The translations under genes and the position numbers were made by a program. Below, piece after piece: positions 6,981-45,705 of a DNA stretch of 64,000 nt (the stretch's first letter is position 1; every line of letters starts with the position of its first letter). The notes beneath the pieces are model-generated. The model worked only from the letters and a program-made list of their open reading frames with translations. It was not told the origin of the DNA and searched no databases. Where the stretch lies: assembly GCF_015244565.1 (NCBI RefSeq), contig NZ_JABCQG010000013.1, positions 1 to 64,000 on the forward strand, in the 5' to 3' direction. This DNA comes from Gluconobacter vitians. Lineage in GTDB: Bacteria > Pseudomonadota > Alphaproteobacteria > Acetobacterales > Acetobacteraceae.

Positions 6981-6984
<4 letters not shown>
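6319..6984 (-). CDS. czcR: OmpR-family response regulator of the czc operon
   Basis: A 221-residue regulator with an N-terminal receiver domain: acidic pocket IIEDEP, phospho-acceptor Asp51 in LLLDLGLPDG, conserved lysine in VKPYD. The C-terminal OmpR/PhoB winged helix includes LSAREWAIVELLA and VESNAIEVFISRIRKK. Its start overlaps the czcA stop (ATGA) and its stop overlaps the kinase start, so all five genes are probably translated from one message. It likely activates the czc promoter upstream of czcC. Confidence 0.9.
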
Positions 6985-10058
<3,074 letters not shown>

Positions 10059-10065
10059 GGCGGTG

Positions 10066-24209: not shown

Positions 24210-24860
24210 ATCTAGATAGATACGCTACCCGCTACCGTCAAGATACCTGCTATCCAATAAGTAGCGAATATCCAAAAGATAGCAGATATCTCAATGGTAG
24301 CGGGTAGCGATGTGGAGGGCATGAAAGCCGGAAGACTTTCCCGTTCCTGCAGCAATCTGCTGGTAGTGGCTACCCAATGTAGCCGGGTAGCGGGTAGCGA
24401 CGTGGAACGGCATGGAAGCCGGAAGACCCTCCCGTTCCTGCAGCAATCTGCTGGTAGCGGCTACCCAATGTAGCCGGGTAGCGGGTAGCGACGTGGAACG
24501 GCATGGAAGCCGGAAGACCCTCCCGTTCCTGCAGCAATCTGCTGGTAGCGGCTACCCAATGTAGTCGGGTAGCGGGTAGCGACGTGGAGCGGCATGGAAG
24601 CCGGAAGACCCTCCCGTTCCTGCAGCAATCTGCGGGTAGCGGCTACCCATTATAGCCGGGTAGCGGGTAGCGACGTGGAACGGCATGGAAGCCGGAAGAC
24701 CCTCCCGTTCCTGCAGCAATCTGCGGGTAGCGGCTACCCAATGTAGTCGGGTGGTGGGTAGCGACGTGGAGCGGCATGGAAGCCAGAAGACCCTCCCGTC
24801 CCTGCACCAATCTGCGGGTAGCGGCTATCCATTATAATCGAGTAGCGGCTACCCAAGCCT
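24210..24860. repeat. Centromere-like array: six 91-bp tandem repeats built from GGGTAGC heptads
   Basis: Units recur with CGTGG (TGTGG in the first) at 24311, 24401, 24492, 24583, 24674 and 24765, a period of 90-91 bases. Each carries paired GGGTAGC heptads (GGGTAGCGGGTAGCG) and an inverted pair, GGTAGCGGCTACC, separated by a conserved GC-rich spacer with CCTGCAGCAATCTGC. The stretch 24210-24310 nearest parA has more dispersed GATAGC/GCTACC variants and probably contains the parA promoter. The position immediately upstream of a ParA/RHH operon matches the centromeres of such loci. Confidence 0.85.
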
Positions 24861-25133: not shown

Positions 25134-25511
25134 ATGCGCCGCTACCAGTTCCCCTATGTTCCAGCGCCTCGCGGTCGGCCGCCTTTGCGGTGGACTGATA
25201 CCCAGGAGCCCATGTCCTGCCGTCGGTGCAACGCGCACTGGGAAGAGGGCGACCCGGCCCTGACCATCGCCTGCACGGGCTGTCACGCGCCTGCACATGA
25301 GCCGTGCCGCCGTGGATCGGGTGGCAACGAGCAGGTCTGTGCCTGCCGGGACGAGGCGGCCGTGCAGCTTGGACTTCTCTCACGCTGTGAAGGCCTGAGC
25401 TGGGATAACCGGCATGTAAAGCCACTCATGCTCCGGGCCGCTCCTGTCCCCACCGCCCTGATGTGTCGCTCTGTCCGGACAGGTGCTCCTGTCAGCAGGT
25501 TTGTGCCATGA
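25134..25511 (+). CDS. Zinc-site protein (RING/PHD-like cysteines), unknown
   Basis: 125 residues from MRRYQFPYVPAPRGRPPLRW. Cysteines and histidines follow the order CRRC, CTGCHAPAHEPC, CACR, a cross-brace-like zinc pattern unusual in bacteria. The stop overlaps the start of the PP-loop gene as ATGA, so the two are translationally coupled. No specific family recognised. The ribosome-binding site is weak (GATCGAG). Confidence 0.6.
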   Translation: MRRYQFPYVPAPRGRPPLRWTDTQEPMSCRRCNAHWEEGDPALTIACTGCHAPAHEPCRRGSGGNEQVCACRDEAAVQLGLLSRCEGLSWDNRHVKPLMLRAAPVPTALMCRSVRTGAPVSRFVP

Positions 25512-26227
25512 CGCCGGATCTGACCTCCTATGACAGCATCATCGTGGCCGTCTCGGGCGGGAAAGACGGCACCGCCTGCCTCCTTGCCCTCCTTGAAGCC
25601 GGTGCTCCGAAGGACCGCCTGGAACTGTGGCACCACGAGGTGGACGGGCAGGGGCCATCCTTCATGGACTGGCCCTCCACCTCGCCCTATGTGAGCGCGT
25701 TGGCGCAGGATTTCGGGCTGCCGCTCTATCGCTCCTGGCGAGAGGGCGGCTTCGAGCGGGAGATGCTCCGCAACGCTGCCCCGACGGCGCCTGTCCTTTT
25801 CGAAAGCCCTGACGGGCTGATCCGTACAGGAGGGCAGGGGCCAAACGGCACACGTCTGCGGTTTCCTCAGGTCTGGGACAGTCTGAAGCGCTGGAACGTG
25901 ATGCCGGCGCTGCCATACCGCATCGGCTTTTCCAGGCTGTCCTGTGCCACCTGTATTTTTGGCGATGCGCGGCAGTTTGCAACGATCCGCTGGCTCGATC
26001 CTGCCCGCTTTGAGCGCCTCGTACAGTACGAGCAGCAGTTCGGCTGCACCATCAAGCGGACCGTCTCCCTGGAGCAGTTCGCGGAGCAGGACAGGCCGTA
26101 TGACGCTGCCCTGTCAGCGCCCGATCTGGCCCGCGCGTGCCTGTCGTCGCGGCCGATCCCGACCGTCCTCACACCAGCCTGGGAGCTACCGGCCGGAGCG
26201 TTCGGGCAGGGGGCAGGGCCGACTTAG
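25508..26227 (+). CDS. PP-loop ATPase of the PAPS-reductase/phage type
   Basis: 239 residues with the PP-loop SGGKDGTACLLALL at residues 15-28 (Gly in place of the usual Ser of SGGKDS) and a second conserved region RLSCATCIFGDARQF with a CxxC pair. This layout matches PAPS-reductase-family proteins common in phages and plasmids and distantly DndC, not sulfate-assimilation CysH. These enzymes adenylate a substrate; the CxxC may hold Fe-S or zinc. Coupled to the zinc-site gene upstream and followed by a DNA methylase-helicase, a DNA or RNA modification role is possible but unproven. Confidence 0.75.
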   Translation: MTPDLTSYDSIIVAVSGGKDGTACLLALLEAGAPKDRLELWHHEVDGQGPSFMDWPSTSPYVSALAQDFGLPLYRSWREGGFEREMLRNAAPTAPVLFESPDGLIRTGGQGPNGTRLRFPQVWDSLKRWNVMPALPYRIGFSRLSCATCIFGDARQFATIRWLDPARFERLVQYEQQFGCTIKRTVSLEQFAEQDRPYDAALSAPDLARACLSSRPIPTVLTPAWELPAGAFGQGAGPT

Positions 26228-26424
26228 AAAAAAGTAGAAAAAACAGACGGTTGAAAAAGGAAAAGGAGGGGAGGGGGCAGCACAGGCCAGCCCGCCCCGC
26301 AAGAGGTGGGTCCGGCCGTGTCCTCGCTACGCTGCGGGCCGGGCGGTCCCGACGCTGCGCGTCGCTCTGGCAGGTCGCGCTGTCCTGCGCTCGCCGGAGA
26401 GGGTCAGGAAAGGAAATAAAGACG
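26228..26424. other. Structured intergenic cassette A (G/A-rich tract plus GC-rich hairpins)
   Basis: A purine run (GAAAAAGGAAAAGGAGGGGAG) at 26252-26275 is followed by GC-rich self-complementary sequence, including GACGC-TGC-GCGTC near 26360, then a ribosome-binding site. It shares GGCCGTGTCCTCGCT (26314-26328) with cassette D at 40764. The same layout is found before 37471, 39522, 40879 and 51247. Confidence 0.6.
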
Positions 26425-26685
26425 ATGTCAGAGACCCTCGAACGCCCCGCACAGGCCACGGCCTTTGAACCCAGACAGGCTCACAAGGAAGGCTGGACGC
26501 TCCTCGAAGGATGCGGACCCGAGAACGACGAGACGCATCTGGTGGGTCTGCATTGCAGCGATCCGCAAGCCTGGTGGCGCGTGGCGACGAAGGCACGGGA
26601 AGGGTCGGCCTACCACTGTGACGCGCTGGCCCGCCTGTCCGAGGGCGAGTGTGAGCAGATCCGCCTGCGCTTTGGTCCCCTCTGA
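26425..26685 (+). CDS. Small unknown protein
   Basis: 86 residues from MSETLERPAQATAFEPRQAH, ending EGECEQIRLRFGPL. Contains HLVGLHCSDPQAWWRVATKA; no family recognised. AGGAAAGGAAAT precedes the ATG. It sits between the PP-loop gene and the giant methylase-helicase, all in one direction. Confidence 0.6.
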   Translation: MSETLERPAQATAFEPRQAHKEGWTLLEGCGPENDETHLVGLHCSDPQAWWRVATKAREGSAYHCDALARLSEGECEQIRLRFGPL

Positions 26686-26799
26686 CCCCGAACTGATCCG
26701 GGAGGCCTGACGCCTCTCTCCCCGCACTGATCCTGTTTTCCGGCCCCCCGGTCTGCCTCCGTGCAGCACCGGGCGCTGCCGCTTGTCCGGAGTTTTTCC

Positions 26800-29700
26800 A
26801 TGTCCACGTCCCAACTGAGCTTTTTCGATACCTCAGCACTCGGCGGCAGCCAGTCCAATCTGTACTGGGGCGAGCTTCCGGGAGACCGCGCCCTTGAGGA
26901 AGCCGCCGCTGCGGCCCAACAGGGGGCAAAAGCCCCGGCCCCGATCCCCGCTGTCCTGCCGAAGGTGGACTTTGCCCTGGCCGGAACGCGTGGTCTCGCC
27001 CAGGGCTGGAAAGAGCGTGCGCGAGACAATCTTGCGGCGATCCGCCTTCTGGCCACGCTTGAAGCCGAAGACCGCAACGCCAGCCCCGACGAGCAGGCCG
27101 TCCTTGCCCGTTTCACAGGGTTCGGGGCCGGAGAGCTGGCCAACAGCCTGTTCCCGCGTGCGGGAGAGACCTTCCGGGCAGGGTGGGAAGAGATCGGCAG
27201 CCAGCTTGAGGAACTGACCAGCCAGCAGGAGCGGGCGGGTCTGGCACGGGCGACACAGTACGCCCATTACACGCCCGAGCTGATCGTCCATGCGATGTGG
27301 GATCTGGCGGCGCAGATGGGCTTCCGGGGTGGACGCGCTCTGGAGCCGGGCTGTGGCACAGGGCTTTTCATGGCGAGCGTGCCCCCGAAGCTGGCCCCGA
27401 AAACCGCGTGGACCGCAATCGAGAACGATCCGCTGACGGCCCGGATCACGCGCAAGCTGTTTCCGAACCAGTGGGTCCGGTCCGAGGATTTCACGACGGC
27501 CAAGCTGGCGGAACGCTACGATCTGGTCATCGGCAACCCGCCCTTCAGCAACCGCACGGTTCGAGGCACGGACGAGCTGGGCCGCCTTGGCCTGTCCCTG
27601 CATGACTACTTCATCGCCCGGTCCATCTCCCGTCTGCGTCCCGGAGCGCTGGCGATGTTCGTCACGTCGCGGTGGACGATGGACAAGTCCGATGCTGGCG
27701 CACGGCGCACAATATTCGAGACAGCCGATTTCGTGGGCGGCGCACGCCTGCCAGCGGGTGCCATGCGCGACGATGCCGGAACCGATGTCGTGGTGGACGT
27801 GCTCGTATTCCGCCGCCGCGCACCGGGCGAGGATGCAGGCGATGCCACCTGGCTGGACGTGGCTGCGCTGGAGGACACCGATCAGGGCGAAGGCCCGCTG
27901 CGGATCAACCGCTACTTCGCGGAAAACGGCCAGCAGGTTCTCGGCCGGCACGACTGGACGAGCGGTCAGTTCGGACCCGAATACACCTGCAAGGCCAATC
28001 CGCTCCAGATGCTGGACGAGGCCCTGCCACTGGCCCTTGGCCGTCTCTCTTCGCTAGCCCGCTTCCCCGTCCCGCAGACACTCGATGTCGCGGCGGTGCA
28101 GGATAACCACGCCGCCGAGATCGGAACGGCCGCAGACGGTGCCCTGCTGAAAGAGGGGAGCTACCTGCTGCACAAGGGCGCGCTGCACCAGATCATTGAC
28201 GGCGAAACCGTGCTGGTGAAGGTGAAGAAAGGCGAGCAGAAGGAAGGGATCTTCCAGAAGCACGCCGCGATCATCAAGGGCCTGATTCCTGTCAGGGATG
28301 CGGCCCGGCTCGTGCTTCGGGCACAGGTGGAAAACCTGCCCTACAGCGCCCATCAGGCCGATCTCAAACGCGCGTATCAGGCCTTCGCCCGTCAGTTCGG
28401 AGCGATCAACCTCACCAACACCACAACGCGGGTGGATGAAGAGACGGGTGAGGAGAAGTCCACACAGCGGCGTCCGAACCTTCAGCCCTTCTACGATGAC
28501 CCGGATGTGTGGCTGGTCAGCTCGATCGAAGAGTATGACGAGAAGGCCCAGACCGGCCGTCCGGGTCCGATCTTCAGCGAGCGCGTGATCCAGGCGCCGT
28601 CCGAGCCCGAGGTTCACGGCGCTCATGATGCGCTGGCGGTCTCCCTGCACGAGACAGGCGGCGTGGACGTCGAGCGCATGGCGGAGCTTCTGGGCCGCCC
28701 AGGTGAGGAGGTGCTCGCCGAACTCGGATCCTCGGTCTATCTCGACCCGATCCGCAGCACAGGTGGCCGTGAGGTCTGGGTGACGGCAGACGAAGCCCTG
28801 TCAGGCGCGGTTCGCACCAAGCTGGCGCAGGCCCGGGAGGCGGCCGAGCGCGACCGACGCTATCAGCGCAATGTCGCCGCCCTTGAAGAGGTCCAGCCCG
28901 AAGACCTGCGCCCGTCCGACATCACCGCCCGTCTGGGAGCCCCGTGGATCCCTGTGCCGGATGTCGAGGCTTTCGTCGCAGAGGTCATGGGGGTCCGCAC
29001 GACCATTCACCACACGCTGGAGGTGGCGACCTGGAGCGTGGACAAGAGCGGGTTTTCCGGCAAGGCGGAGGCCACCTCGGTCTGGGGGACGCAGCGCCGT
29101 CATGCCGGGGATCTGCTGGACGATGCGCTTAATCAGGCCAGCCCGAAAATCTGGGACACCTGGCGCGATGTGAATGGCGAACACCGTGAACTGAATACGA
29201 AGGAGACCGAGGCCGCCAAGGAAAAGCTGGCCGCGATCAAGACCGCGTTTGAGACGTGGGTGTGGCAGGACACTGACCGCGCCGAGCGTCTGGTGCGGCT
29301 GTATAACGATGCGTTCAACAACCTTGTCCCGCGCACGTTCGACGGCTCCCACCTGAAACTGCCCGGAGCGAGCACAGCAATCAGCCTGCGCGACCATCAG
29401 AAGCGGGTGATCTGGCGGATCATCGCCAAGGGCAGCACCTACATGGCCCATGCGGTGGGGTCCGGGAAGACGTTCTCGATGTGCGCGGCCGTGATGGAGC
29501 AAAAGCGCCTCGGCCTGATTTCCAAGGGCATGATCGTGGTGCCCGGGCACTGCCTTGCGCAGATGGCGCGTGAGTTCATGATGCTCTACCCGAACGCCCA
29601 GATCCTCGTGGCGGACGAGACCAACTTCGTGAAGGACAAGCGCCAGCGGTTCCTGGCCCGGGCGGCTACGGGGAACTGGGACGCCATTGTCATCACGCAT

Positions 29701-31908
29701 GACGCCTTCAAGTTCGTGCCGGTCGAGAGCGCCTTTGAGCAGGAAATGGTCGAGGACCAGATTGCGTCCTACGAAAGCCTTCTGGAGAACGTGAACCGCG
29801 ATGACCGCCTGTCGCGCAAGCGCATCGAGCGCCTGAAGGAGGGAATGGAAGCCAAGCTGAAGGCCCTGTCCAGCCGCAAGGATGACATGGTGCATCTCGG
29901 CGAGATCGGGGTGGACCAGATCCTCGTGGATGAGGCGCAGCAGTTCCGCAAACTGTCTTTCGGCACGAACCAGTCCGATCTGAAGGGGATCGACCCGAAC
30001 GGCAGCCAGCGCGCCTGGGATCTGTTCGTCAAAACGCGCTACCTCGCCAAGCGTAATCCCGAGCGCGTGCTGGTGATGGCGTCAGGCTCGCCGATTACCA
30101 ACACCCTGGGCGAGATGTTCTCGATCCAGCGGTTCATGGACCTGCCAGCCCTTGTCGAGCGTGGCCTGCACGAGTTCGACGCCTGGGCCGCAAGTTTTGG
30201 CGAGACCCGCACGGAACTGGAGCTTCAGCCGAGCGGTCTTTACAAGCCTGTCACGCGGTTCTCCGAGTTCGTGAATGTTGCCGACCTGATGGCGATGTAT
30301 CGCGACTTTGCCGACGTCGTGCAGCAGGACGACCTGCGACGCTACGTGAAATTGCCCGAGATTGCGGGCGGCAGGCGTGAGATCGTCGTGGCCGATAGCG
30401 GGGACGCCTTCCGAGAATATCAGAAGACGCTTGCCGAGCGGATCAAGACGATTGAAGAGCGCACGGGCAAGCCCCAGAAGGGTGACGACATCTTGCTGTC
30501 CGTCATCACCGATGCCCGGCACGCGGCCATCGACCTGCGTTTCGTGCGGAACTGGGCGGATAACGACAACAGCAACAAGCTGAACGTCATGATCCGCAAG
30601 GTCTTCCGGATCTGGCAGGACACGTCGGCCAACCGTTACACCGACCCCGAGACGGGACGGGCATATGACCTGCCGGGTGCCACGCAGATGATCTTCTCGG
30701 ATTTGGGCACGGAATCCGCCCTGGAGACACGCGGTTTCTCGGCCTATCGCTGGATCCGCGACGAGCTGATCCGCATGGGCATCCCGCGCGAAGAGATCGC
30801 CTTCATGCAGCACTACAAGAAGAGCGCTGCCAAGCAGGGGCTCTTCCGCGACATGAACGCGGGCCGCAAGCGGATCCTGATCGGATCGTCCGCGACCATG
30901 GGAACGGGAGTGAACGCGCAGCAGAGGCTGATCGCCCTGCATCATCTCGATGTGCCCTGGCTGGTCTCGGACATCATCCAGCGTGAAGGCCGGATCGAGC
31001 GGCAGGGCAACCAGAACCCGGTCATCCGGATTTACGCCTATGCCCTGAAAGGCTCGGTGGATGCGACGAACTGGCAGATGCTGGAGCGCAAGCAGAAGTT
31101 CATTTGCCTTGCCATGTCCGGAGACCGGACGATCCGCCGTCTGGAAGATGTGGGGGCGGAAGCCGACCAGTTTGCCATGGCCAAGGCCCTTGCGTCAGGG
31201 GATGAACGCCTGATGCAAAAGGCGGGACTGGAGGCCGAGCTGGCCCGCCTGGAGCGGTTGCAGGCCGCGCATCACGACGACCAGTACAACGTCCGTCGTG
31301 CCATTGACCGTGCCGAGCGTGACCGTGAGACGGCGCAGGCCGTGATCCCGCGTCTTCAGAACGACATCGCAAAGCGTGAGCCGACGCGCGGTGAAGCGTT
31401 CAGGCTGGTGCGCAAGGATCGGGAGATGACCGAGCGTGAGAAGGCCGGTCTGTGGCTTCTCTCGCAGGCCCGTCTCGCCGCGAAGTCCGGGGAGAAAGGC
31501 AAGTGGACGTTAGGTGCGATCGGCGGTTTCGAGATCCTGTGCGAGACCTGGCGCACCCGCTTTGACGGGGAGGAGACATGGGACGCAACCCTCGGTCTTG
31601 TGCTGGACGGGCGCATCCTCGGCATGGACTTCGACCGCGAGACAAGCCCGGTCGGGCTGGTCAGCCGCATCGAGAACGCGCTGCTGCGGTTCGAGGTCGA
31701 GCTGGCGGACGCGCGCCGTCAGGTGGAAGAAGCCGAGCGCAAGCTCCCCGGCTACCGCGCCCGTGTGGGTCTGGCGTTCCCGGAGGCGGCGCTGTTGCAG
31801 GAGAAGCGCGAGGCCATGGCGGCCCTTGAGGCGGATCTGGCAGCCGATACGCAACGCCGTAACGACGCGGAAGAGGCTGAAGCAAAGGCCGCGCTCGAAG
31901 CTACGTGA
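26800..31908 (+). CDS. Giant DNA methyltransferase-helicase fusion (DarB-like)
   Basis: About 1702 residues from the ATG preceded by GGAGTTTTTCC. The N-terminal third is an adenine-N6 methyltransferase fold: SAM-binding ALEPGCGTGLFM near residue 180 and catalytic NPPF near 245. The C-terminal half is an SF2/SNF2 helicase: Walker A AVGSGKT near 885, VDEAQQFRKL near 1043, and motifs V-VI SSATMGTGVNAQ...IQREGRIERQGNQNP near 1363-1405. Long helices close the protein. P1 DarB, which protects incoming DNA from type I restriction, has this architecture, and related proteins are frequent on plasmids. The role here is inferred. Confidence 0.85.
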   Translation: MSTSQLSFFDTSALGGSQSNLYWGELPGDRALEEAAAAAQQGAKAPAPIPAVLPKVDFALAGTRGLAQGWKERARDNLAAIRLLATLEAEDRNASPDEQAVLARFTGFGAGELANSLFPRAGETFRAGWEEIGSQLEELTSQQERAGLARATQYAHYTPELIVHAMWDLAAQMGFRGGRALEPGCGTGLFMASVPPKLAPKTAWTAIENDPLTARITRKLFPNQWVRSEDFTTAKLAERYDLVIGNPPFSNRTVRGTDELGRLGLSLHDYFIARSISRLRPGALAMFVTSRWTMDKSDAGARRTIFETADFVGGARLPAGAMRDDAGTDVVVDVLVFRRRAPGEDAGDATWLDVAALEDTDQGEGPLRINRYFAENGQQVLGRHDWTSGQFGPEYTCKANPLQMLDEALPLALGRLSSLARFPVPQTLDVAAVQDNHAAEIGTAADGALLKEGSYLLHKGALHQIIDGETVLVKVKKGEQKEGIFQKHAAIIKGLIPVRDAARLVLRAQVENLPYSAHQADLKRAYQAFARQFGAINLTNTTTRVDEETGEEKSTQRRPNLQPFYDDPDVWLVSSIEEYDEKAQTGRPGPIFSERVIQAPSEPEVHGAHDALAVSLHETGGVDVERMAELLGRPGEEVLAELGSSVYLDPIRSTGGREVWVTADEALSGAVRTKLAQAREAAERDRRYQRNVAALEEVQPEDLRPSDITARLGAPWIPVPDVEAFVAEVMGVRTTIHHTLEVATWSVDKSGFSGKAEATSVWGTQRRHAGDLLDDALNQASPKIWDTWRDVNGEHRELNTKETEAAKEKLAAIKTAFETWVWQDTDRAERLVRLYNDAFNNLVPRTFDGSHLKLPGASTAISLRDHQKRVIWRIIAKGSTYMAHAVGSGKTFSMCAAVMEQKRLGLISKGMIVVPGHCLAQMAREFMMLYPNAQILVADETNFVKDKRQRFLARAATGNWDAIVITHDAFKFVPVESAFEQEMVEDQIASYESLLENVNRDDRLSRKRIERLKEGMEAKLKALSSRKDDMVHLGEIGVDQILVDEAQQFRKLSFGTNQSDLKGIDPNGSQRAWDLFVKTRYLAKRNPERVLVMASGSPITNTLGEMFSIQRFMDLPALVERGLHEFDAWAASFGETRTELELQPSGLYKPVTRFSEFVNVADLMAMYRDFADVVQQDDLRRYVKLPEIAGGRREIVVADSGDAFREYQKTLAERIKTIEERTGKPQKGDDILLSVITDARHAAIDLRFVRNWADNDNSNKLNVMIRKVFRIWQDTSANRYTDPETGRAYDLPGATQMIFSDLGTESALETRGFSAYRWIRDELIRMGIPREEIAFMQHYKKSAAKQGLFRDMNAGRKRILIGSSATMGTGVNAQQRLIALHHLDVPWLVSDIIQREGRIERQGNQNPVIRIYAYALKGSVDATNWQMLERKQKFICLAMSGDRTIRRLEDVGAEADQFAMAKALASGDERLMQKAGLEAELARLERLQAAHHDDQYNVRRAIDRAERDRETAQAVIPRLQNDIAKREPTRGEAFRLVRKDREMTEREKAGLWLLSQARLAAKSGEKGKWTLGAIGGFEILCETWRTRFDGEETWDATLGLVLDGRILGMDFDRETSPVGLVSRIENALLRFEVELADARRQVEEAERKLPGYRARVGLAFPEAALLQEKREAMAALEADLAADTQRRNDAEEAEAKAALEAT

Positions 31909-32457: not shown

Positions 32458-36318
<3,861 letters not shown>

Positions 36319-37470: not shown

Positions 37471-39333
37471 ATGGCCGAGCTTCGCCGCGTTGATCCGAAA
37501 ACCCTTGTGCCCAATCCGAACAATCCGCGCTCTTCCATCGGAAGTCTTGAGGAACTGCGCAAGCTGGCGCTGAATATCAAGGCGATTGGCATCCTCCATC
37601 CCCCGGCAGTCCGCGAACTGGAAGATGGACGCCTGATGATTGTGGCCGGGCACCGTCGCGCGCAGGGAGCCATCTATGCGGGCCTTCCTGAAATTGACGT
37701 GTATGTCGGTGACCAGAGCGATGACCTCGATGCACTGGCCGCCGTCAGCGAGAACTTCGTCCGTCTCGACATGACGGAGCCGGAGCAGTGGAACAGCGTC
37801 ACCCGTCTGCGTGAGGAGCTTGGCTACACGGATCCGCAGGTCTGTTCGGCCCTGATGGTGACGCCGACCTATCTCAAGCGCCTGAGTCTGTTGGCCAAAC
37901 TGCATCCGCCCATCCTCGATGCCATCGCTCTTGGGCGTGGACCGGATGACCGCCAGCGCAAGATCCTCGCCCAGGCGTCTTTGGAAGAGCAGCGCGACGC
38001 ATGGGCGGAGACGTATGCCGAGAGCGTCGAGGACGGAGAAGACCCGGCCGAGTACCGCCTGAAGGCGAAAGATCCGAAGGACACCGTGGCCTGGGAAGCG
38101 CTCGCCCGGAACCTTGAGCAGCGGGAATGGTATGCCCGCAACGCCCGGTTCGGTGATGATCTTGCCCGCAGGCACAACATCGTCTGGATGGAGGATCTGT
38201 TTGCCGAGCCCGGAACGGACAGCCGCTATACGCTCGATGCCACGGCTTACGCCGCTGCGCAGCAGGACTGGCTGGACAATGAGCGGCCCGAACGCTCCAT
38301 TGTCCTGACCACGGACGAGTACGGATACATCCGCGCCCCCGAAGGCTTCATTACCATGGGGACCTGGATGCCGACACAGGAGGGTGAGGTGATGGGTTAC
38401 GGCCTCAATCCCCGGACCCTGAAGATCGTGGAAGAACGCTGCCGTCCGTCTGTTGCCTTTACACAGAGCCACGCGAACGTATCCGCAGAGCCCGAGGCCC
38501 CGAAAGAACGACCGGATGTTTCCGGGACCGGCCACAAGATGATCGGCGAGATCCGCACCGTCGCCTTGCGCGAAGCCCTCGGCGAGGTGGCCGAGACAGC
38601 CGATCCATGGGAGCTGATCGCAGCCCTCCTGCTGGCGCTGGAAGCCGAGAACGTCCGTGTGCATGGCGATGCCAGCGGAAACAACTGGTCAGAGCCAACC
38701 GCCCGCACGCTTGCGATGGCTGACCTGTTCCCCGAAGGCAGCCTTGTCCGTGACGAGACGCTGATCCGCCGCCATGCCGTCGCCGTCCTGCAAAGCATCC
38801 TGAACTGCGACGTGTCGATGCACAGCGGCAGTGGCCTGCCCGCGCAGCTCGTGGGCGTCCTGTTCGGAGCCGACCAGAAGATGCCCAGCATGGCCTTTGA
38901 GGCGTTCCTCAAATGCTACAGCAAGCCCGGCATCACCAAAGCGGTTCAGGCCGAAGGCCTTGCGCCGCAGAACACCGGCAAGGAGATGCGTGCGGTCCTT
39001 ATGAACCATGTCGGGGAAGGCCACTGGCTGCCCGAGGTGGCGTCCTTTGCGCAGGCGCAGGACGTCTGGACGCAAAAGCAGAAGAAAAAACAGCAGAAGA
39101 TCCGCGAGCTGGAAAGCGTGGTGGACGATGAGGACCTGGACGAGGTGCCTGAAGATGATTTCGATGGAGCAGCCGATGATGAGGCCGACCTGTCGAACGG
39201 CCCTGTCGTGCCAGTGACGGAGCCGGACTCAGAAGAGACCTTCTCTCTCGACGCGCCCGAGCCCGAGCAGTCGGAGCAAAACGAGGCCATGCAGTTCATG
39301 CGTGACCACCTCGAAATCGTGGTCGTGGCCTGA
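37471..39333 (+). CDS. parB: ParB/Spo0J-family nuclease-like plasmid protein
   Basis: 620 residues. The N-terminal ParB domain (residues 1-95) has PNPNNPRSSIGSLEELRKLA and GHRRAQGA, the nucleotide-binding box. An HTH region, VCSALMVTPTYLKRLSLLAK, lies near 125-150. The long C-terminal part is unusual, ending in a highly acidic region. It is unlinked to the ParA at 23.5 kb, which has its own RHH partner, so this may serve another system or regulate plasmid genes, as many stand-alone ParB-like plasmid proteins do. Confidence 0.85.
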   Translation: MAELRRVDPKTLVPNPNNPRSSIGSLEELRKLALNIKAIGILHPPAVRELEDGRLMIVAGHRRAQGAIYAGLPEIDVYVGDQSDDLDALAAVSENFVRLDMTEPEQWNSVTRLREELGYTDPQVCSALMVTPTYLKRLSLLAKLHPPILDAIALGRGPDDRQRKILAQASLEEQRDAWAETYAESVEDGEDPAEYRLKAKDPKDTVAWEALARNLEQREWYARNARFGDDLARRHNIVWMEDLFAEPGTDSRYTLDATAYAAAQQDWLDNERPERSIVLTTDEYGYIRAPEGFITMGTWMPTQEGEVMGYGLNPRTLKIVEERCRPSVAFTQSHANVSAEPEAPKERPDVSGTGHKMIGEIRTVALREALGEVAETADPWELIAALLLALEAENVRVHGDASGNNWSEPTARTLAMADLFPEGSLVRDETLIRRHAVAVLQSILNCDVSMHSGSGLPAQLVGVLFGADQKMPSMAFEAFLKCYSKPGITKAVQAEGLAPQNTGKEMRAVLMNHVGEGHWLPEVASFAQAQDVWTQKQKKKQQKIRELESVVDDEDLDEVPEDDFDGAADDEADLSNGPVVPVTEPDSEETFSLDAPEPEQSEQNEAMQFMRDHLEIVVVA

Positions 39334-39521
39334 AGCAGGGAGAGGGAAAAGAAAAGGAAAGGAGGGGAGGGGCGCTGCCATCGCGCTCCGTCCGGGTCAA
39401 AAGGTGGCTCCTCACCGGCTGCGCCGCTTCCGGTGCCGGCGCACGCGCCGCTTTTGACCCGGCCCTCCCGCGCTGACGCTGGAGAAGACATCACGAAAAT
39501 CCAAAGGAAAAGGATCAGACG
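39334..39521. other. Structured intergenic cassette C with 12-bp inverted repeat
   Basis: Purine-rich run (39334-39371), then CCGGGTCAAAAG (39392-39403) pairing with CTTTTGACCCGG (39451-39462) around a GC-rich interior that itself can fold (CCGGTGCCGG). Followed by AAAGGATCAG before the next start codon. Same architecture as cassettes A, B, D and E. Confidence 0.7.
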
Positions 39522-40202
39522 ATGTTCGTCCCCACTCTTGCTCCCATTCAGGTCGGCACCCGCGTTTATACTCACCTCTACAGCCGGGGAGCCGGAATCG
39601 TCATGGCTGTTTACGGCAAGGAAAGCCCGACCACCGTCCGGTCCCTGTCGCGTGGCGGGGCCATCGTGTCGGGCGGGAGCGCCTCCTATGACATCGTCTT
39701 TGCCTGTGGCTCGATCTCCCGTCGTCTGCCCGAGGCCATTCTGCGCGGTGTCCAGTGGCGGATCGAAGCCGACAAGAAACTGGCAAGCGCTGAGGAGATC
39801 GCCTTCCTCCGCACCCATGCCGAAGAGGTTGAGGCTGAGAAGGTGGCAGCCGAAGCGCGCGCGAAAGCCGAACATGCCGCCGAGGTCGCAGCACTCCGCG
39901 TCAATCCGGACTATGCCGATCTGGAGCAGGGCGACGACAGCAGCGGCACGCTGGCGGCCAAAAACATCCGCCGGATGCTGAAGAAGGCTTTCCCGAAGGT
40001 GAAGTTTTCCGTCCGCAAGAGCCACTACGGCAGTGTGATCGTGCGGACCGAGGAGGATCTGGACGAGACGGCGACCGAAACCCTCCAGGCCATCACGTCG
40101 CGGTTCAAGTCCGGTTACTACGACTGGCAGTCCGACTGCCACCTGACCAGAAACAGCCCTTGGCAGGATGTGTTCGGCAGCTCCGAATTTGTGAGCGACT
40201 GA
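39522..40202 (+). CDS. LPD29-like protein, unknown
   Basis: 226 residues. The N-terminal part, VGTRVYTHLYSRGAGIVMAV, looks like a small beta domain; a charged Ala/Glu coiled segment follows. The C-terminal part, NIRRMLKKAFPKVKFSVRKS, resembles the large polyvalent-protein-associated domain LPD29 found in mobile-element proteins. No enzymatic motif seen. Followed by a strong terminator at 40228. Confidence 0.65.
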   Translation: MFVPTLAPIQVGTRVYTHLYSRGAGIVMAVYGKESPTTVRSLSRGGAIVSGGSASYDIVFACGSISRRLPEAILRGVQWRIEADKKLASAEEIAFLRTHAEEVEAEKVAAEARAKAEHAAEVAALRVNPDYADLEQGDDSSGTLAAKNIRRMLKKAFPKVKFSVRKSHYGSVIVRTEEDLDETATETLQAITSRFKSGYYDWQSDCHLTRNSPWQDVFGSSEFVSD

Positions 40203-40227
40203 GCCTCTCTTTTTTCGTCCGCCCTTC

Positions 40228-40256
40228 AAGGCCGCCCGCTCCGGGGCGGCCTTTTT
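40228..40256 (+). terminator. Rho-independent terminator
   Basis: AAGGCCGCCC (40228-40237) pairs perfectly with GGGCGGCCTT (40244-40253) across a six-base loop, followed by TTTTT. Ends the transcript of the LPD29-like gene. Confidence 0.9.
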
Positions 40257-40274
40257 CAGTTCAGGAGCCCTGAC

Positions 40275-40682
40275 ATGCCCGTTTTTACTGTGACGCTCAG
40301 CGAGCGCCAGCTTCTCTCCGATCGCGTCACCTTTCAGGTTGAGGCCCAGACGGCCGAGGCAGCCGGTCAGCTCGTGCTGGACGCGACGGCTGACGAGCCG
40401 AACATGAGCGGCCTGCGCTCTGTTCGCCTGCCAGACGGTCAGAACGCCGTTCTCGAACCCGAAAACGTGGACGGCAATGAGGTCTCGGTGTCCGTCCGCC
40501 CGGTCGATCAGCCGGATGCGGTGGCCACGCAGATCGGCGCGTGCTGGCATCTGGATCTCTCGGCACCTGAAGCGCGCCGCCTTCTTCCTGTCCTGACCGG
40601 TGCGGTTGTGGACGAGGACGACCCCGTCACGCGCGCGCTCTGTGCCCGCCTGGCGCGGCAGGTCGCCAATCTCGCGCAGTAG
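40275..40682 (+). CDS. Unknown plasmid protein
   Basis: 135 residues from MPVFTVTLSERQLLSDRVTF, with AGGAGCCCTGAC upstream. Early beta strands and an acidic middle (LEPENVDGNEVSVSV); C-terminus helical. No family recognised. Confidence 0.7.
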   Translation: MPVFTVTLSERQLLSDRVTFQVEAQTAEAAGQLVLDATADEPNMSGLRSVRLPDGQNAVLEPENVDGNEVSVSVRPVDQPDAVATQIGACWHLDLSAPEARRLLPVLTGAVVDEDDPVTRALCARLARQVANLAQ

Positions 40683-40878
40683 GAGACGGGAAAAGAAAAA
40701 GGGGGAAGGGGGAGAAGGAGAGGGCAGGCACCACACCGGAGCCTGTCTGGCAAAGGGTGGGTCGGCCGTGTCCTCGCTGCGCTGCGGGTCGTCCGATCCC
40801 GCTGCGTTGCAGCGCCTTTGCCAGCCAGTCTCCGCTGCGGTCGCCGGAAGAGGTCATGAAAGAAAACAGGAGAATGAC
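40683..40878. other. Structured intergenic cassette D
   Basis: Purine run (40684-40725) then CTGGCAAAGG (40747-40756) pairing with CCTTTGCCAG (40815-40824). The interior GGCCGTGTCCTCGCT (40764-40778) is shared with cassette A. Followed by a ribosome-binding site for a tiny membrane protein. Confidence 0.7.
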
Positions 40879-41007
40879 ATGGCCGACTTTTCCGATCTGC
40901 GTCCCCGCAACCGCACGGAATGGCTCGAACTCGCAGGGTTCGTAGCGGGCGTCGCGCTGTTCGCAGCCTTCATCGTTCTGGTGGTGGTGCTTCCCGCCTT
41001 TCTCTGA
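40879..41007 (+). CDS. 42-residue single-span membrane protein
   Basis: Begins MADFSDLRPRNRTEWLELAG and continues into a hydrophobic helix (VALFAAFIVLVVVLPAFL) at the C-terminus. AGGAGAATGAC precedes the ATG. A short N-in tail with one membrane span suggests a regulator or pump-associated peptide; the role is unknown. A hairpin (GCCGCCC/GGGCGGC, 41022-41039) without a T-run follows. Confidence 0.65.
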   Translation: MADFSDLRPRNRTEWLELAGFVAGVALFAAFIVLVVVLPAFL

Positions 41008-41061
41008 CCGATCCGAGATCAGCCGCCCTCACGGGCGGCCCTGTCCTGTGTGGAGATCACC

Positions 41062-41412
41062 ATGCCGACATACACTCTGGCTGCCATCCCTGCGGCCTCT
41101 CACGGGAGCCTCATCTCCTGTTCGTCCCCTGACCGCTACAGACAGACACGGATCGAAGCGCCTGATCTTGCCGGGATCCGGGCGGCCGTTGTCGAGTACG
41201 GCACGCGCCTGCGCGGCGACTATCCGGAGGCCTCCTTTCTTGTGTCAGTGACACCCGAGCGTGGGAGCGATCATCCCGAGGGCTTCTGCGACGCCCGCTG
41301 GAAAGGATCTCTGGGCACCGAGCAGTGGATCAGAGTGATTCCTGAAGAGACGCCGTTCAAAGCCTACCTCACTCAGGTCGAGGCGATGCTCGCCCGCGAG
41401 GTGCGGTCATGA
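41062..41412 (+). CDS. Unknown plasmid protein
   Basis: 116 residues from MPTYTLAAIPAASHGSLISC; GGAGATCACC precedes this ATG. Contains SFLVSVTPERGSDHPEGFCD. The stop overlaps the next gene as ATGA. No family recognised. Confidence 0.65.
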   Translation: MPTYTLAAIPAASHGSLISCSSPDRYRQTRIEAPDLAGIRAAVVEYGTRLRGDYPEASFLVSVTPERGSDHPEGFCDARWKGSLGTEQWIRVIPEETPFKAYLTQVEAMLAREVRS

Positions 41413-41930
41413 ACGGCTTGGAGCCAGCGTCCATTGCGTGCCCGTCCCTGCGGCGGCCGCCGATCGGGCCTCAGGGCCTCACCGCAACGCAGTTCAGTGA
41501 CACAGCCGAGAAAGCGAAAATCGGGAACGCGCTGCTGGCCTTCATCGCACGCGGGTTTCCGCAGAGCGCGTGGAACCGCACACTTTACAACCGCCTGAGC
41601 CAGATGTTCGGGCATATCGCCCATTTCGACATCCATGGCTTCTGGGGCGCGCAGTTCTCCACGACACAGGCGCGTCTGGGCTTCCTGCGCGGCATCGTCC
41701 TGCACGGCTGTTATGGCGATCCGGCCTGGACCTGGTCGGACGTCGAACGCGACATCCGCAACCGCATCATCGGCAGCGGGCTGATCGACGCTTACACGCG
41801 CGCCCTTGCCGCCGAGCAGGAGGCACGCGACCGGGCCGATCTGGCCCGTCTGGCACAGCGCTTCAGGATCTCCCTGCCATCCGAACACCAGCCTCTCCCT
41901 GCCGCGCCCGTGCAGGCCGAGCTTTTCTGA
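41409..41930 (+). CDS. Unknown plasmid protein
   Basis: 173 residues, largely helical, with WNRTLYNRLSQMFGHIAHFD and WTWSDVERDIRNRIIGSGL. Translationally coupled to the preceding gene by ATGA. It is followed by ssb after 26 bases, suggesting a plasmid DNA-metabolism operon. No family recognised. Confidence 0.7.
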   Translation: MNGLEPASIACPSLRRPPIGPQGLTATQFSDTAEKAKIGNALLAFIARGFPQSAWNRTLYNRLSQMFGHIAHFDIHGFWGAQFSTTQARLGFLRGIVLHGCYGDPAWTWSDVERDIRNRIIGSGLIDAYTRALAAEQEARDRADLARLAQRFRISLPSEHQPLPAAPVQAELF

Positions 41931-41956
41931 CACGGGCCAGAGAAAAGGACAGAGCA

Positions 41957-42307
41957 ATGGCTCAGACCCTCAGCCTTGCCATCGTCATTGGCAACCTTGG
42001 CGCGGATCCTGAGATCCGCACAGAACAGGACGGACACCGCGTGGCCCTTTTCCGTCTGGCGACGGACAGCCACCGCACCGACACACACACCGGCCGCCGC
42101 GTCCCCCAGACCGTGTGGCACAGGATTTTCTGCCACAACGATTTTCTGACAGATCTTCTGGAGCGACGCGCCCGCAAGAGCCAGCTCGTGTTCGTGCGCG
42201 GCGCTTACGAAGTCCGCCCGGGTACCGATCAGGGGCCGCCTGAACCCGAGATCGTCGTGAGCGCCCAGGACGGGGATGTGAGGATCCTCACCGACACAGG
42301 CCGCTGA
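41957..42307 (+). CDS. ssb: Single-stranded DNA-binding protein
   Basis: 116 residues with the OB fold of SSB: LAIVIGNLGADPEIR at the start, then VALFRLATDSHR and FVRGAYEVRP. Shorter than chromosomal SSB and lacking the acidic DDDIPF-type tail, as is common for plasmid SSBs. It probably protects single-stranded DNA during transfer or replication. AAGGACAGAGCA precedes the ATG; a longer frame reading through from 41570 is a shadow of the upstream gene. Confidence 0.88.
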   Translation: MAQTLSLAIVIGNLGADPEIRTEQDGHRVALFRLATDSHRTDTHTGRRVPQTVWHRIFCHNDFLTDLLERRARKSQLVFVRGAYEVRPGTDQGPPEPEIVVSAQDGDVRILTDTGR

Positions 42308-42336
42308 CGTCCTCTTTCTTCGTAACACGCACGCAA

Positions 42337-42361
42337 ACCGGCCCTGGAGCCGGTCTTTTTA
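42337..42361 (+). terminator. Rho-independent terminator after ssb
   Basis: ACCGGC (42337-42342) pairs with GCCGGT (42349-42354) around CCTGGA, followed by CTTTTTAT. Confidence 0.85.
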
Positions 42362-42399
42362 TACCCGCTTCCTGACAGAGGCGGGTCTCAGGAGGTTTT

Positions 42400-42621
42400 A
42401 TGTTCTATGCGACGCCCGCTCTCCTCACAGTCCCTCGCAGTCAGGCGCGCGCCCTGAGCGTCCGCCTTATGGCAGAGGCCGTGCTCCTGGAAGACACGGA
42501 TCAGTCCCTCATGCTGCCATCGCGCCTGACGGCCGGTTTCCGCCGCAAGGCCGCGATCCTGCGCCGTCGGTCACACGAGAAGCTCCTGGACAGCCTTGAT
42601 CGTCCGGAAGGTGTGGCATGA
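42400..42621 (+). CDS. Small unknown protein
   Basis: 73 residues, Arg-rich and helical (RSQARALSVRLMAEAVLLED). CAGGAGGTTTT before the ATG is a strong ribosome-binding site. Coupled by ATGA to the next small gene. Confidence 0.65.
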   Translation: MFYATPALLTVPRSQARALSVRLMAEAVLLEDTDQSLMLPSRLTAGFRRKAAILRRRSHEKLLDSLDRPEGVA

Positions 42622-42806
42622 GGACGGCGACGATGAACCGCCGCGCGTATTCACGCCGTTTCTGGGAAGGAAAAACGCGGTTCTCACAGGCCGTGAGACG
42701 CACACTGGCGGAACTGGAACGACAGAAAGGGCAGACGAAGAAGGACGAAGACGGGATGGCCGACATCGAGTCTTCGAAAAAAAGGCTATCCGGCGTTTGG
42801 GGTTGA
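42618..42806 (+). CDS. Small basic protein, unknown
   Basis: 62 residues, very basic (MNRRAYSRRFWEGKTRFSQA), the start overlapping the previous stop as ATGA. Possibly nucleic-acid binding. Convergent with the HTH antitoxin gene at 42840, with 33 bases between. Confidence 0.55.
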   Translation: MRTATMNRRAYSRRFWEGKTRFSQAVRRTLAELERQKGQTKKDEDGMADIESSKKRLSGVWG

Positions 42807-42839
42807 TGGGCTGAATCCCCGGCTCGTTGTGAAGGTAGC

Positions 42840-43118
42840 TCAGGCCACTGCCTGAGCTACCATATCGGGGTGACGTCCGATGACCCGGACGTAGGCTACA
42901 GCGAAGTCGGGGGCCATCGCCCGTGCCTGTTCCCAGTCACGTAACGTGCCGACAGGGACGCGGAAACGGCTGGCAAATTCGACCTGAGACAAACCGAGAT
43001 CGTTACGGGTTTTACGGATCAACCGCGCTCTTTGCCCACGCTCCATGCCTTCGGTGGATACCGCACGGTCTTCGGAATCCGCCGGATCAGCAGGCAGAAT
43101 GATATGCTTTCTCTTCAC
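42840..43118 (-). CDS. XRE-type HTH antitoxin partner of BrnT
   Basis: 92 residues with the helix-turn-helix LGLSQVEFASRFRVPVGTLR followed by DWEQ. The gene overlaps the BrnT-like toxin gene by 32 bases and takes the place of BrnA. It should neutralise BrnT and bind the palindromes at 43370-43418. Confidence 0.85.
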   Translation of the reverse strand: MKRKHIILPADPADSEDRAVSTEGMERGQRARLIRKTRNDLGLSQVEFASRFRVPVGTLRDWEQARAMAPDFAVAYVRVIGRHPDMVAQAVA

Positions 43119-43359
43119 CTTTGTTGCTCCTTCTCACGGAAATGAAGCGGGGCAGATCGTCCCGCCAGACAAACACACCGGTGCACAGCTTCTCGCCCAC
43201 GACGCCAACCACTTTGTAGCGATCCTCCTCATCCTCGATGCGGATGGTGGGCAAGATCAGGTGATTATCGTCCTCGAAAATACGGTCGCCAAAGGCCAGA
43301 GACAGCTTGTGCTTTTTTTGGTTGGCGAGGTCTTTTGCGGGGTCAAACCTGTTATCCAT
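43087..43359 (-). CDS. brnT: BrnT-like ribonuclease toxin
   Basis: 90 residues beginning MDNRFDPAKDLANQKKHKLS, then FEDDNHLILPTIRIEDEEDR and FISVRRSNKGEEKAYHSA, matching BrnT (RelE-like fold, Dx(3)N..KH, RxxR..E). The start at 43357-43359 is chosen because it matches the family; a longer frame to 43470 would cross the operator. Cleaves RNA when unopposed. Confidence 0.85.
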   Translation of the reverse strand: MDNRFDPAKDLANQKKHKLSLAFGDRIFEDDNHLILPTIRIEDEEDRYKVVGVVGEKLCTGVFVWRDDLPRFISVRRSNKGEEKAYHSAC

Positions 43360-43369
43360 GAGACGACAA

Positions 43370-43418
43370 TACGGGATACCCGTAGTTATTGCAAAGAGAA
43401 AAATACGGGTATCCCGTA
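43370..43418. promoter_or_regulatory. Paired palindromic operators of the BrnT locus
   Basis: TACGGGATACCCGTA (43370-43384) and TACGGGTATCCCGTA (43404-43418) are each palindromic, are reverse complements of one another, and lie 34 bases apart centre to centre, about three helical turns. They flank the expected promoter right ahead of the toxin ATG. Confidence 0.85.
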
Positions 43419-43470
43419 ACTTTTGGCCATTTCGACAGGTCGCCATCAACCTCATATGCCGGATAGACAA

Positions 43471-44056
43471 AAAAAGCTGAGGCCGAGGGCTTCAGTCGCA
43501 GATGGCACGGGCAGACTGATGACACTTCTTGAAGGATCCGTTCATGCCGAACCATCAGACGTTGCCGCTTCAACCACCCCTTGCGGGGTGGCACGGAGCT
43601 GTGTTCCGACCTCGCCGTCATGCGATCAGTGTGACAGTCACGGTCCGAGGGTCTCAAGACAACCCTTCGGGCTCCAGACCGCGTCTTTCGTCAAAAGAGG
43701 GCCGCGTTCATCGCAGGACGGTGTCCCGCGCTGCCCGCAACCCGCTTTTGCCGATCCGCAGTCTTCCGGTCCTGACACCCTCGGCCCGCAACTGTCGTGT
43801 TCCTGGCAGGACGGGACGAGAAAAACGTCTCCACACAGCTCCTTTCAGCGGCAACACCGGGGGCTGCGCTGCCCCCGAAACCCCCGCAGGACGAACAAGA
43901 AAAACTGGTTTTTGGCGCGCTGGACGCAAGAACTATTTTATTCAATCAAGTAAATATATTGCACGGTATTCCGTTGTATTCAGTGGATATTGTGACGGTA
44001 ATTTACTATACTTTCCAAAGATCGAAAGTAACGGACGTTCGGGAGGATTTTCCGTC
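43471..44056. other. Intergenic region, 585 bp: structured GC-rich part, then AT-rich promoter region
   Basis: No convincing gene; the frame open from 43529 is an in-frame extension of the 44057 gene with implausible composition. Seen: an AGTCGCAGA motif at 43494-43502, GGCAGGACGGG...AAAACG at 43805-43827 (also in the 52.5 kb repeat), hairpin GGGGGCTGCGCTGCCCCC near 43860, and AT-rich 43930-44030 with TATACT (44007-44012) and TGGATA 17 bases upstream as a weak promoter. Confidence 0.55.
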
Positions 44057-45037: not shown

Positions 45038-45705
45038 AACAGAGCAAATCCCGTCTGAGCTGGCAGGCCGTCACGCTGATCCTGTGGCGGCAGGACACAG
45101 AGGCCATCAAAGTCTGGAAGCGTGCCGGGGTGGGATCCTCTGCTCCTGAGGTCTTCTGCGAGGCGCAGACGCCCGAGGGGCTGGTGCAGGGCGTCGTGAT
45201 CGGCGGTGATCGCCTGAATGATGCCTGGGACCGCGACGGCGAGCTGATCGTCTTCACCCGCAAGTCCACGATCGTCCGTCTGAACGGACCTGAACTCCCA
45301 ACGCTCACTTTGTCAGCCTGCCCCAAGGCTTTTGAGGACGTCATGATGTATAACGACACACGATCAACGGCCTGCCAGCATATCGACCAGATGGTTCTCA
45401 AGAGCGGCCTGACCTTCAACATGCTGGGCCACGAAAAGGCCTCTGCGATCTGGATGGATCATGCGCGCCGCCTCGGCTGTACGGATCCTGAAGCGCCGGA
45501 GATGCCGGTCCCGCATCAGCTTGTGTGGCTGGGCAGCGGCCTGAACCGCGCACTGGCCCTCGTCATTGCCGGGCGTTGGGACGGCCCTCATGAGGGCTTC
45601 AATCTCTATCATCCGCTGACCCTTTTTACTGACAGCAGCAATGTCGTGGCCGTCGAGGATCCGGTGGCGTCTGAAGTCTATCCGGTTGAGCAGGTGCCCG
45701 CATGA
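45034..45705 (+). CDS. Unknown plasmid protein between TOPRIM and UvrD-type genes
   Basis: 223 residues from MKQSKSRLSWQAVTLILWRQ. Includes VVIGGDRLNDAWDRDGELIV. It overlaps both neighbours as ATGA, so three genes form a tightly coupled unit. No family recognised; DNA metabolism is inferred from context. Confidence 0.75.
   Translation: MKQSKSRLSWQAVTLILWRQDTEAIKVWKRAGVGSSAPEVFCEAQTPEGLVQGVVIGGDRLNDAWDRDGELIVFTRKSTIVRLNGPELPTLTLSACPKAFEDVMMYNDTRSTACQHIDQMVLKSGLTFNMLGHEKASAIWMDHARRLGCTDPEAPEMPVPHQLVWLGSGLNRALALVIAGRWDGPHEGFNLYHPLTLFTDSSNVVAVEDPVASEVYPVEQVPA

What the first reader, a model, noticed from the sequence alone, without database searches (positions are those of the whole stretch)
25134..31908. 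Zinc-site protein, PP-loop enzyme and DarB-like methylase-helicase in one block
The PAPS-reductase-like protein (SGGKDG, CxxC) is coupled to a RING/PHD-like zinc protein and followed by a giant methylase-helicase. PP-loop enzymes with CxxC take part in DNA phosphorothioation (DndC) or nucleoside modification. This could be an uncharacterised DNA-modification or antirestriction module of acetic acid bacterial plasmids.
Basis: inference. Interest (0 to 1): 0.6.

Follow-up and report, generated by a model that had tools for sequence, protein, structure and literature searches.

The report
Plasmid anti-restriction block, one enzyme broken
A Gluconobacter plasmid carries a gene block that probably helps plasmid DNA survive in new cells, but the enzyme gene that made the block look special has lost its core here, and several related plasmids have broken copies of the same gene.

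Summary
The three genes exist, but the central one is not intact. Against its full-length relatives the PP-loop (PAPS-reductase-like) gene has an in-frame 252-nt deletion between 7-bp direct repeats. It removes 84 of 323 residues, 17 of 44 family-invariant positions and core strands of the fold. No Pfam domain is recognised and the genome holds no second copy. The zinc gene, a small ORF and the 1,702-aa DarB-like methylase-helicase gene are open. In relatives the block is real: 15 of 26 genomes in the genus have the PP-loop gene, and all 15 also have the zinc gene and DarB (one DarB only a fragment). Elsewhere an ArdC anti-restriction gene often takes the zinc gene's place. Zinc, ArdC, DarB and ParB hits within 8 kb lie on the PP-loop strand in 122 of 122 cases. 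PP-loop relatives occur in 1,542 of 72,556 plasmid records, IncC included. In the window's lineage the PP-loop gene is broken in 9 of 19 copies (8 distinct lesions); its neighbours show two lesions. A second lineage does not show this.

The parts
25134..25511 (+). zinc protein, 125 aa; C29, C32, C47, C50, C58, C85, H94 invariant in 17 aligned homologues; stop codon overlaps the next start (ATGA)
25508..26227 (+). PP-loop (PAPS-reductase/DndC/BrxP-like) gene with an internal in-frame deletion, 239 aa instead of 323; probably inactive
25868..25874 (+). deletion junction: the single remaining copy of the 7-bp direct repeat CAGGTCT that flanks the missing 252 nt in the relative L003
26425..26685 (+). 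small conserved ORF, 86 aa (phrog_38215), open in 17 of 17 readable lineage-A copies
26800..31908 (+). DarB-like protein, 1702 aa: LPD36-type GFGAG, TP motif, NPPF adenine methylase, SF2/SNF2 ATPase motifs; open throughout (longest ORF starts 26761)
37471..39333 (+). ParB_N-domain protein; ParB homologues lie within 8 kb of the PP-loop gene in 19 of 50 fully flanked genome loci; membership of the block less certain

Best explanation
This is the remnant of a plasmid establishment/anti-restriction block. In its fuller form it reads: zinc-finger (or ArdC) gene, PP-loop gene, small ORF, DarB-like methylase-helicase, often with a ParB-like gene nearby. The most likely working is that after conjugative entry the DarB-like protein translocates along the plasmid duplex, N6-methylates adenines and shields the DNA from recipient restriction (inferred from P1 DarB). 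The zinc protein binds nucleic acid and takes the place ArdC holds elsewhere (inferred). The intact PP-loop enzyme activates a substrate with ATP (fold predicted; ATP use and substrate inferred). In this plasmid the PP-loop gene carries an in-frame deletion at a 7-bp repeat, while the other genes stay open (shown); loss of activity is inferred from the missing motifs and strands. The same gene is broken repeatedly in this plasmid lineage (shown), so its activity may be dispensable or costly once a plasmid is settled (inferred).
For: Deletion and junction; no second copy. Deleted residues 121-204 hold 17 of 44 invariant positions and, in the model of an intact relative (pLDDT 93.8), helix 131-145 and strands 154-158, 175-177, 191-195. 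For the intact relative P0005 the best-scoring stretches of the PF01507, BrxP, DndC and APS-reductase models all cross this part; the window protein has 0 Pfam hits at E <= 1. Omega medians among relatives: DarB 0.04, zinc 0.08, intact PP-loop 0.11. Lineage A: PP-loop broken in 9 of 19 copies, 8 distinct lesions, against 2 DarB lesions and none in zinc (19 copies) or small ORF (17 copies); binomial p = 3e-5. Co-occurrence and co-orientation. ArdC neighbours.
Against: No function was tested. The deletion is in frame and the rest of the gene shows no clear decay (omega 0.19 against L003, 7 non-synonymous and 12 synonymous changes), so a retained truncated protein is not excluded; the window protein still matches the PHROG family 424 'phosphoadenosine phosphosulfate reductase' through its flanks (E 7.8e-12). 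In lineage B the PP-loop gene is not preferentially broken (2 of 14 compared, against 4 DarB genes). The lineage-A test was chosen after seeing the data, and some single-base lesions could be sequencing errors. Outside Acetobacteraceae DarB is near in only 5 of 27 fully flanked loci, so PP-loop and DarB are not obligate partners. ArdC, zinc and DarB roles in this plasmid are by analogy only.
Confidence: 0.7

Rival explanations
1. The truncated protein is kept for a non-catalytic role, or the reading frame is kept because translation is coupled through the ATGA overlap.
For: Three of four large deletions in lineage A are multiples of three (252, 126, 321; the fourth is 86). Frame open, omega 0.19. 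PHROG 424 still matches the flanks.
Against: Three or more of four in frame is expected by chance in about one case in nine (my arithmetic). The 321-nt copy also has a stop at codon 157. Core strands of the fold are gone. Contigs of G001 and G011 have zinc, small ORF and DarB genes and no PP-loop gene (DarB truncated in G011).
Confidence: 0.12
2. The window's PP-loop protein is an active DNA-modifying (DndC-like) enzyme.
For: SGGKD loop and CxxC remain.
Against: RWCS...K and TGERAEES..R motifs, invariant Cys131 and core strands deleted; no other copy in the genome.
Confidence: 0.03
3. The PP-loop gene is metabolic cargo (sulfate assimilation) unconnected with its neighbours.
For: APS/PAPS reductase fold, Z 14.1, rmsd 3.5, 192 residues; annotated as PAPS reductase family in most of the plasmid rows listed.
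Against: SGGKD loop with C131 and C230xxC233, whereas I recall assimilatory reductases as having another loop and a C-terminal cysteine motif (recalled, not tested); two PAPS-family genes already on another contig, C8; neighbour hits co-oriented 122 of 122.
Confidence: 0.06
4. The deletion is an assembly or sequencing artefact.
For: Draft genome, 93 contigs; reads not available.
Against: A clean 252-nt in-frame gap at a 7-bp repeat is a typical slippage or recombination product, and three other lineage-A copies have other large deletions.
Confidence: 0.04

Closest known systems
DarB-type LPD36-adenine methylase-SNF2 proteins (phage P1 DarB; polyvalent proteins, PMC5512222, passages seen)
   Same: phrog_10089 match over residues 39-1700 of P0003; GXGA, TP, NPPF and SF2 motifs present
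   Different: On a plasmid, single chain of 1702 aa, with zinc and PP-loop genes upstream; protection never tested
ArdC (R388; PMC7213743, abstract and outline seen)
   Same: In Roseomonas L006, Methylosinus L007 and Sphingomonas L044 the gene just upstream of the PP-loop gene has an ArdcN domain; MPTase-PolyVal checked for Methylosinus only
   Different: No ArdcN match in the window's genome; the zinc protein stands there, and the ArdC queries found nothing within 8 kb in the Gluconobacter loci
BrxP of type-4 BREX, DndC and SspD (PMC12839542 passages; PMC10853773 abstract, outline and passages)
   Same: All 11 intact relatives scanned match PADLOC BrxP (best E 7.6e-16) and DndC; 9 match SspD
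   Different: No BREX, Dnd or Ssp partner is annotated beside it in the plasmid stretches; far below the NCBIfam DndC cut-off (23.6 of 290.4 bits for P0005); the window copy lacks the matching region
Anti-defence islands of plasmid leading regions (PMC11541004, passage seen)
   Same: darB genes listed in one such island; in IncC pAM04528 the PP-loop gene lies within 4 kb of the RepB-family initiator gene and mobI
   Different: The main text of that paper has no match for PAPS, phosphoadenosine or reductase; position relative to oriT not determined here
Phage_zn_bind_8 zinc fingers (PF24623)
   Same: 10 of 17 homologues match at E <= 0.1, best 1.8e-4
   Different: The window protein is below cut-off (16 of 24 bits); C29, C32, C85 and H94 lie outside the matched stretch 38-76

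Membership tests
DarB-type methylase-helicase | N-terminal LPD36 GXG(G/A/S) motif | tested here: met
   GFGAGE at residue 107, window 27118; motif as given in PMC5512222
DarB-type methylase-helicase | adenine methylase TP and NPP(Y/F) motifs | tested here: met
   HYTPE at 156, GNPPFS at 245
DarB-type methylase-helicase | C-terminal SF2/SNF2 ATPase | tested here: met
   GSGKT 887, VDEAQ 1043, QREGRIERQG 1394; ResIII above Pfam cut-off, SNF2-rel_dom and Helicase_C below theirs
DarB-type methylase-helicase | protects DNA in cis against type I restriction | not testable with these tools
   needs bench work
PAPS-reductase/DndC/BrxP-type PP-loop enzyme (window copy) | SGGKD PP-loop and CxxC | tested here: met
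   SGGKD at residue 16, SCATC at 145
PAPS-reductase/DndC/BrxP-type PP-loop enzyme (window copy) | RWCS...K and TGERxEES..R core motifs and the surrounding strands | tested here: not met
   deleted; no Pfam match, intact relative matches PF01507; PHROG 424 still matches the flanks
Dnd phosphorothioation system (intact relatives) | DndE and partner genes on the same replicon | tested here: inconclusive
   PF08870: 0 of 13 genomes or records, but the control rang nowhere; DndB query hit only phage KB12-38 and, weakly, Leptolyngbya among the 93 loci
Dnd phosphorothioation system (intact relatives) | cysteine desulfurase encoded beside it | tested here: inconclusive
   PF00266: 1 of 12 plasmid or phage records, 8 matches in the window's genome; housekeeping desulfurases can substitute (PMC12839542, passage)
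RING/PHD zinc finger | significant profile match | tested here: inconclusive
   window protein: PHD 11.6 of 24 bits, Prok-RING_1 10.6 of 29.1; homologues: Prok-RING_1 5 of 17 (best 0.0012), PHD 2 of 17 at E <= 0.1
ArdC | ArdcN domain | tested here: not met
   0 matches in the window's genome; control rang in 2 of 14 genomes and in 4 plasmid records

The most novel reading that the evidence does not exclude
Intact members of this PP-loop family (near-full-length relatives in 1,464 plasmid records, some distant and some possibly broken) are the catalytic part of an undescribed ATP-dependent DNA modification, perhaps sulfur-based. It would be written on entering plasmid DNA by a team of ArdC or zinc protein, the PP-loop enzyme and a DarB or Strawberry-notch-type translocase. 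The mark would be useful only at entry and costly afterwards, which would be why resident Gluconobacter plasmids of one lineage, this one included, keep breaking the enzyme while keeping the rest.
Probability: 0.25. Interest if true: 0.75.

Novelty: new variant of a known kind. Interest (0 to 1): 0.4.

Why it matters
DarB-like and ArdC proteins are known anti-restriction factors. A PP-loop enzyme of the DndC/BrxP superfamily that travels with them on plasmids, and alone on IncC, is an untested enzyme in a setting that may control which cells plasmids can enter. The natural series of intact, broken and missing copies in Gluconobacter plasmids offers pairs for testing what the enzyme adds. For this window it corrects the record: the enzyme gene is broken.

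Tried and rejected
A class V aminotransferase 3' of DarB in L003 looked like a DndA partner. The family is on 1 of 12 records and not at that place in L004, L007 or the window, so it was dropped. The CxxC region matches PDB 21fy_C 'PptA' weakly (E 0.001-0.003); a paper search for it listed nothing relevant. The AlphaFold model of the zinc protein is poor (pLDDT 62), so no fold search was run with it. DndE search: control silent, not usable. No DndC, BrxP or SspD structure appears in the rows shown of the fold searches; this shows nothing about membership. No control for plasmid carriage as such was made: genomes without this plasmid type tend to lack all genes together, so the Fisher p overstates functional linkage. 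Literature: no paper describing this PP-loop gene with DarB or ArdC was noticed in the listed results (at most 20 papers listed per search); subscription journals are mostly missing from that library.
Full report
WHAT IS THERE. The window is the first 64 kb of a 99.6-kb contig, C13, in a 93-contig draft genome. Its genus group holds genomes whose contigs match named Gluconobacter records, for example G018 with G. aidae, and one, G011, whose contig has the length and match position of a Neokomagataea tanensis plasmid record. On the + strand follow a zinc protein gene (25134-25511), a PP-loop gene (25508-26227, ATGA overlap), a small ORF (26425-26685) and a 1,702-aa DarB-like gene (26800-31908). 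Upstream lie a ParA-type gene on the other strand and a 91-bp repeat array. Downstream come a GH15-domain gene on the other strand, a ParB_N gene, a DUF3991/Toprim gene and a UvrD helicase gene. The block's GC, 64.8%, exceeds all 115 sliding windows of its size (mean 60.4%).

THE PP-LOOP GENE IS BROKEN. The full-length relative in G. thailandicus HD924 (L003) is 972 nt; the window's gene is 720 nt and lacks one stretch of 252 nt. In the relative this stretch is bounded by CAGGTCT at both ends, and the window keeps one copy. The 60 plasmid rows listed (of 1,459 records) all align to the window protein in two or more pieces. The genome holds no other copy. An alignment of 34 intact relatives has 44 invariant positions, of which 17 lie in the missing residues 121-204, including Cys131, Lys136 and the TGERAEES..R segment. 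The model of an intact relative is confident (mean pLDDT 93.8) and has the APS/PAPS-reductase fold (best Z 14.1, rmsd 3.5, 192 residues). The deletion takes out one long helix and three strands. The window protein has no Pfam match, while the intact relative matches PF01507 at 129-233 and BrxP and DndC models within about 125-240. Against this, the window protein still matches PHROG 424 and, weakly, PHROG 2302, both named phosphoadenosine phosphosulfate reductase, through what remains. I infer that it is catalytically dead. The event may be recent: dS to L003 over what remains is 0.07.

THE OTHER GENES ARE OPEN. Among relatives the median omega is 0.04 (DarB, 45 pairs), 0.08 (zinc, 53 pairs) and 0.11 (intact PP-loop, 35 pairs); the small ORF was not measured. 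The DarB-like protein has the motifs given for the LPD36-methylase-SNF2 group in the passages of PMC5512222. The zinc protein has seven invariant Cys/His in 17 homologues. Its best profile is Phage_zn_bind_8, below cut-off; PHD and RING profiles are weaker for it.

IS THE BLOCK REAL? In 26 genomes of the genus the PP-loop gene (intact or broken) is in 15, the zinc gene in 18 and a strong DarB match in 18. I dropped two weak DarB matches, G005 and G008; G007 counts with a DarB fragment only. All 15 PP-loop genomes have both others; of the other 11, three have the zinc gene and three have DarB; Fisher p = 1e-4 for each. Plasmid carriage is an obvious confounder. In 80 genome loci from a profile scan (207 relatives confirmed, best 80 kept), the gene ending within 250 nt of the PP-loop start is the zinc gene in 20 of 21 Gluconobacter loci; the 21st, L091, has it too, but its PP-loop gene is split. 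In 19 other Acetobacteraceae loci it is ArdC in 8, DarB in 5, zinc in 4, none of these in 2. In the remaining 40 it is ArdC in 14 and none of these in 26 (grouping made by me from record titles). DarB lies within 8 kb in 11 of 12, 10 of 11 and 5 of 27 loci that have 8 kb on both sides. All 122 such hits (DarB 39, zinc 31, ParB 26, ArdC 26) are on the PP-loop strand. For comparison, 44 of 65 other genes within 8 kb in six annotated plasmids are (hand count). In loci outside Acetobacteraceae other families recur: a Strawberry-notch-type helicase in 8 of the 47 loci clustered, a C5 DNA methylase in 6, a SLOG-domain protein in 10 (Pfam run on one or two members each).

HOW WIDESPREAD. The intact protein finds relatives in 1,542 of 72,556 plasmid records, 1,464 of them over at least 80% of its length; 1,146 are typed conjugative (most are below 60% identity). 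In the IncC plasmid pAM04528 it lies within 4 kb of the RepB-family initiator gene and mobI; no DarB or ArdC hit was found in the 18.7 kb fetched. Among 50,697 phage records 8 match, and only Pseudoalteromonas phage KB12-38 exceeds 40% identity over most of the length (44.6% over 96%); there a DndB gene lies 2 kb downstream.

REPEATED LOSS. I compared 33 distinct Gluconobacter copies of the block, assigned by best match to P0005 or P0009 to lineage A (window, 19 copies) or lineage B (14). Left out were one more lineage-B copy, G016:C9, in which PP-loop, zinc and DarB genes are all uninterrupted, and the more distant copy on NZ_CP102495. In A the PP-loop frame is broken in 9 copies by 8 distinct lesions: deletions of 252, 126, 86 and 321 nt, a shared stop at codon 67 (2 copies, one with a further 1-nt insertion), a 1-nt deletion, a stop at codon 309, and an interruption at codon 252 that may be an insertion or a contig break. 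The zinc gene is open in 19 of 19 and the small ORF in 17 of 17 readable copies. DarB, fully or partly readable in 17 copies plus three separate contig pieces, has 2 lesions, in L130 and in G016:C23. Weighted by sequence length, 8 PP-loop lesions out of 10 has p = 3e-5; dropping the codon-309 stop gives 1.4e-4. In B the pattern is absent: PP-loop 2 of 14, four damaged DarB genes (a fifth not found within reach in L056), one clearly damaged zinc gene (L058) and three with altered ends (L059, L128, L131). A and B together give p of about 5e-4 to 4e-3, depending on what is counted. Contigs of G001 and G011 have zinc, small ORF and DarB genes with no PP-loop gene between them; DarB is truncated in G011. 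Lineage A was singled out after the data were seen.

MECHANISM. Shown: gene order, deletion, selection on the genes, repeated breakage; predicted with high confidence: fold of intact relatives. Inferred: DarB-like methylation and translocation protects plasmid DNA in cis, as reported for P1 DarB (PMC5512222, passages); ArdC lets R388 escape HsdRMS in recipients (PMC7213743, abstract), so the shared slot suggests that the zinc protein also acts at entry. The intact PP-loop enzyme has an SGGKD loop and three invariant cysteines, C131 and C230xxC233, which would fit adenylation plus sulfur or metal chemistry. Type-4 BREX uses a related enzyme for phosphorothioation (PMC12839542, passages), so a sulfur mark on DNA is the boldest reading. 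No Dnd partner was shown on the plasmids, and the one search for DndE had no working control.

VERDICT. The interpretation survives for intact relatives as an untested idea and probably fails for this window.

Noticed in passing
window 24296-24831: 5.9 copies of a 91-bp tandem repeat (94% match) between the ParA-type gene and the zinc gene; possibly a partition or replication site.
   Followed up: no
window 32458-36312, - strand: 1,284-aa protein with a GH15 domain (E 3.6e-12) between DarB and the ParB-like gene; not at this place in L003.
   Followed up: partly
window 37471-47750: ParB_N, DUF3991/Toprim and UvrD genes; DUF3991 and UvrD genes also lie near the block in Roseomonas L006 and Methylosinus L007.
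   Followed up: partly
window 54569-56044, - strand: Fic-domain protein (E 2.1e-12).
   Followed up: no
window 6981-11310, - strand: AcrB-type RND pump with HlyD-type partner.
   Followed up: no
L102:12884-13900: A further protein family, no Pfam match at E <= 0.01, in 12 of 47 clustered loci; its member in phage KB12-38 is annotated as a PAPS reductase; 21 phage records match it.
   Followed up: partly
L041:8490-16586: Pseudoalteromonas phage KB12-38: two annotated PAPS-reductase genes, a C5 methylase, DndB and a 'sulfate reductase' among other genes within 8 kb, a candidate DNA modification cluster.
   Followed up: no
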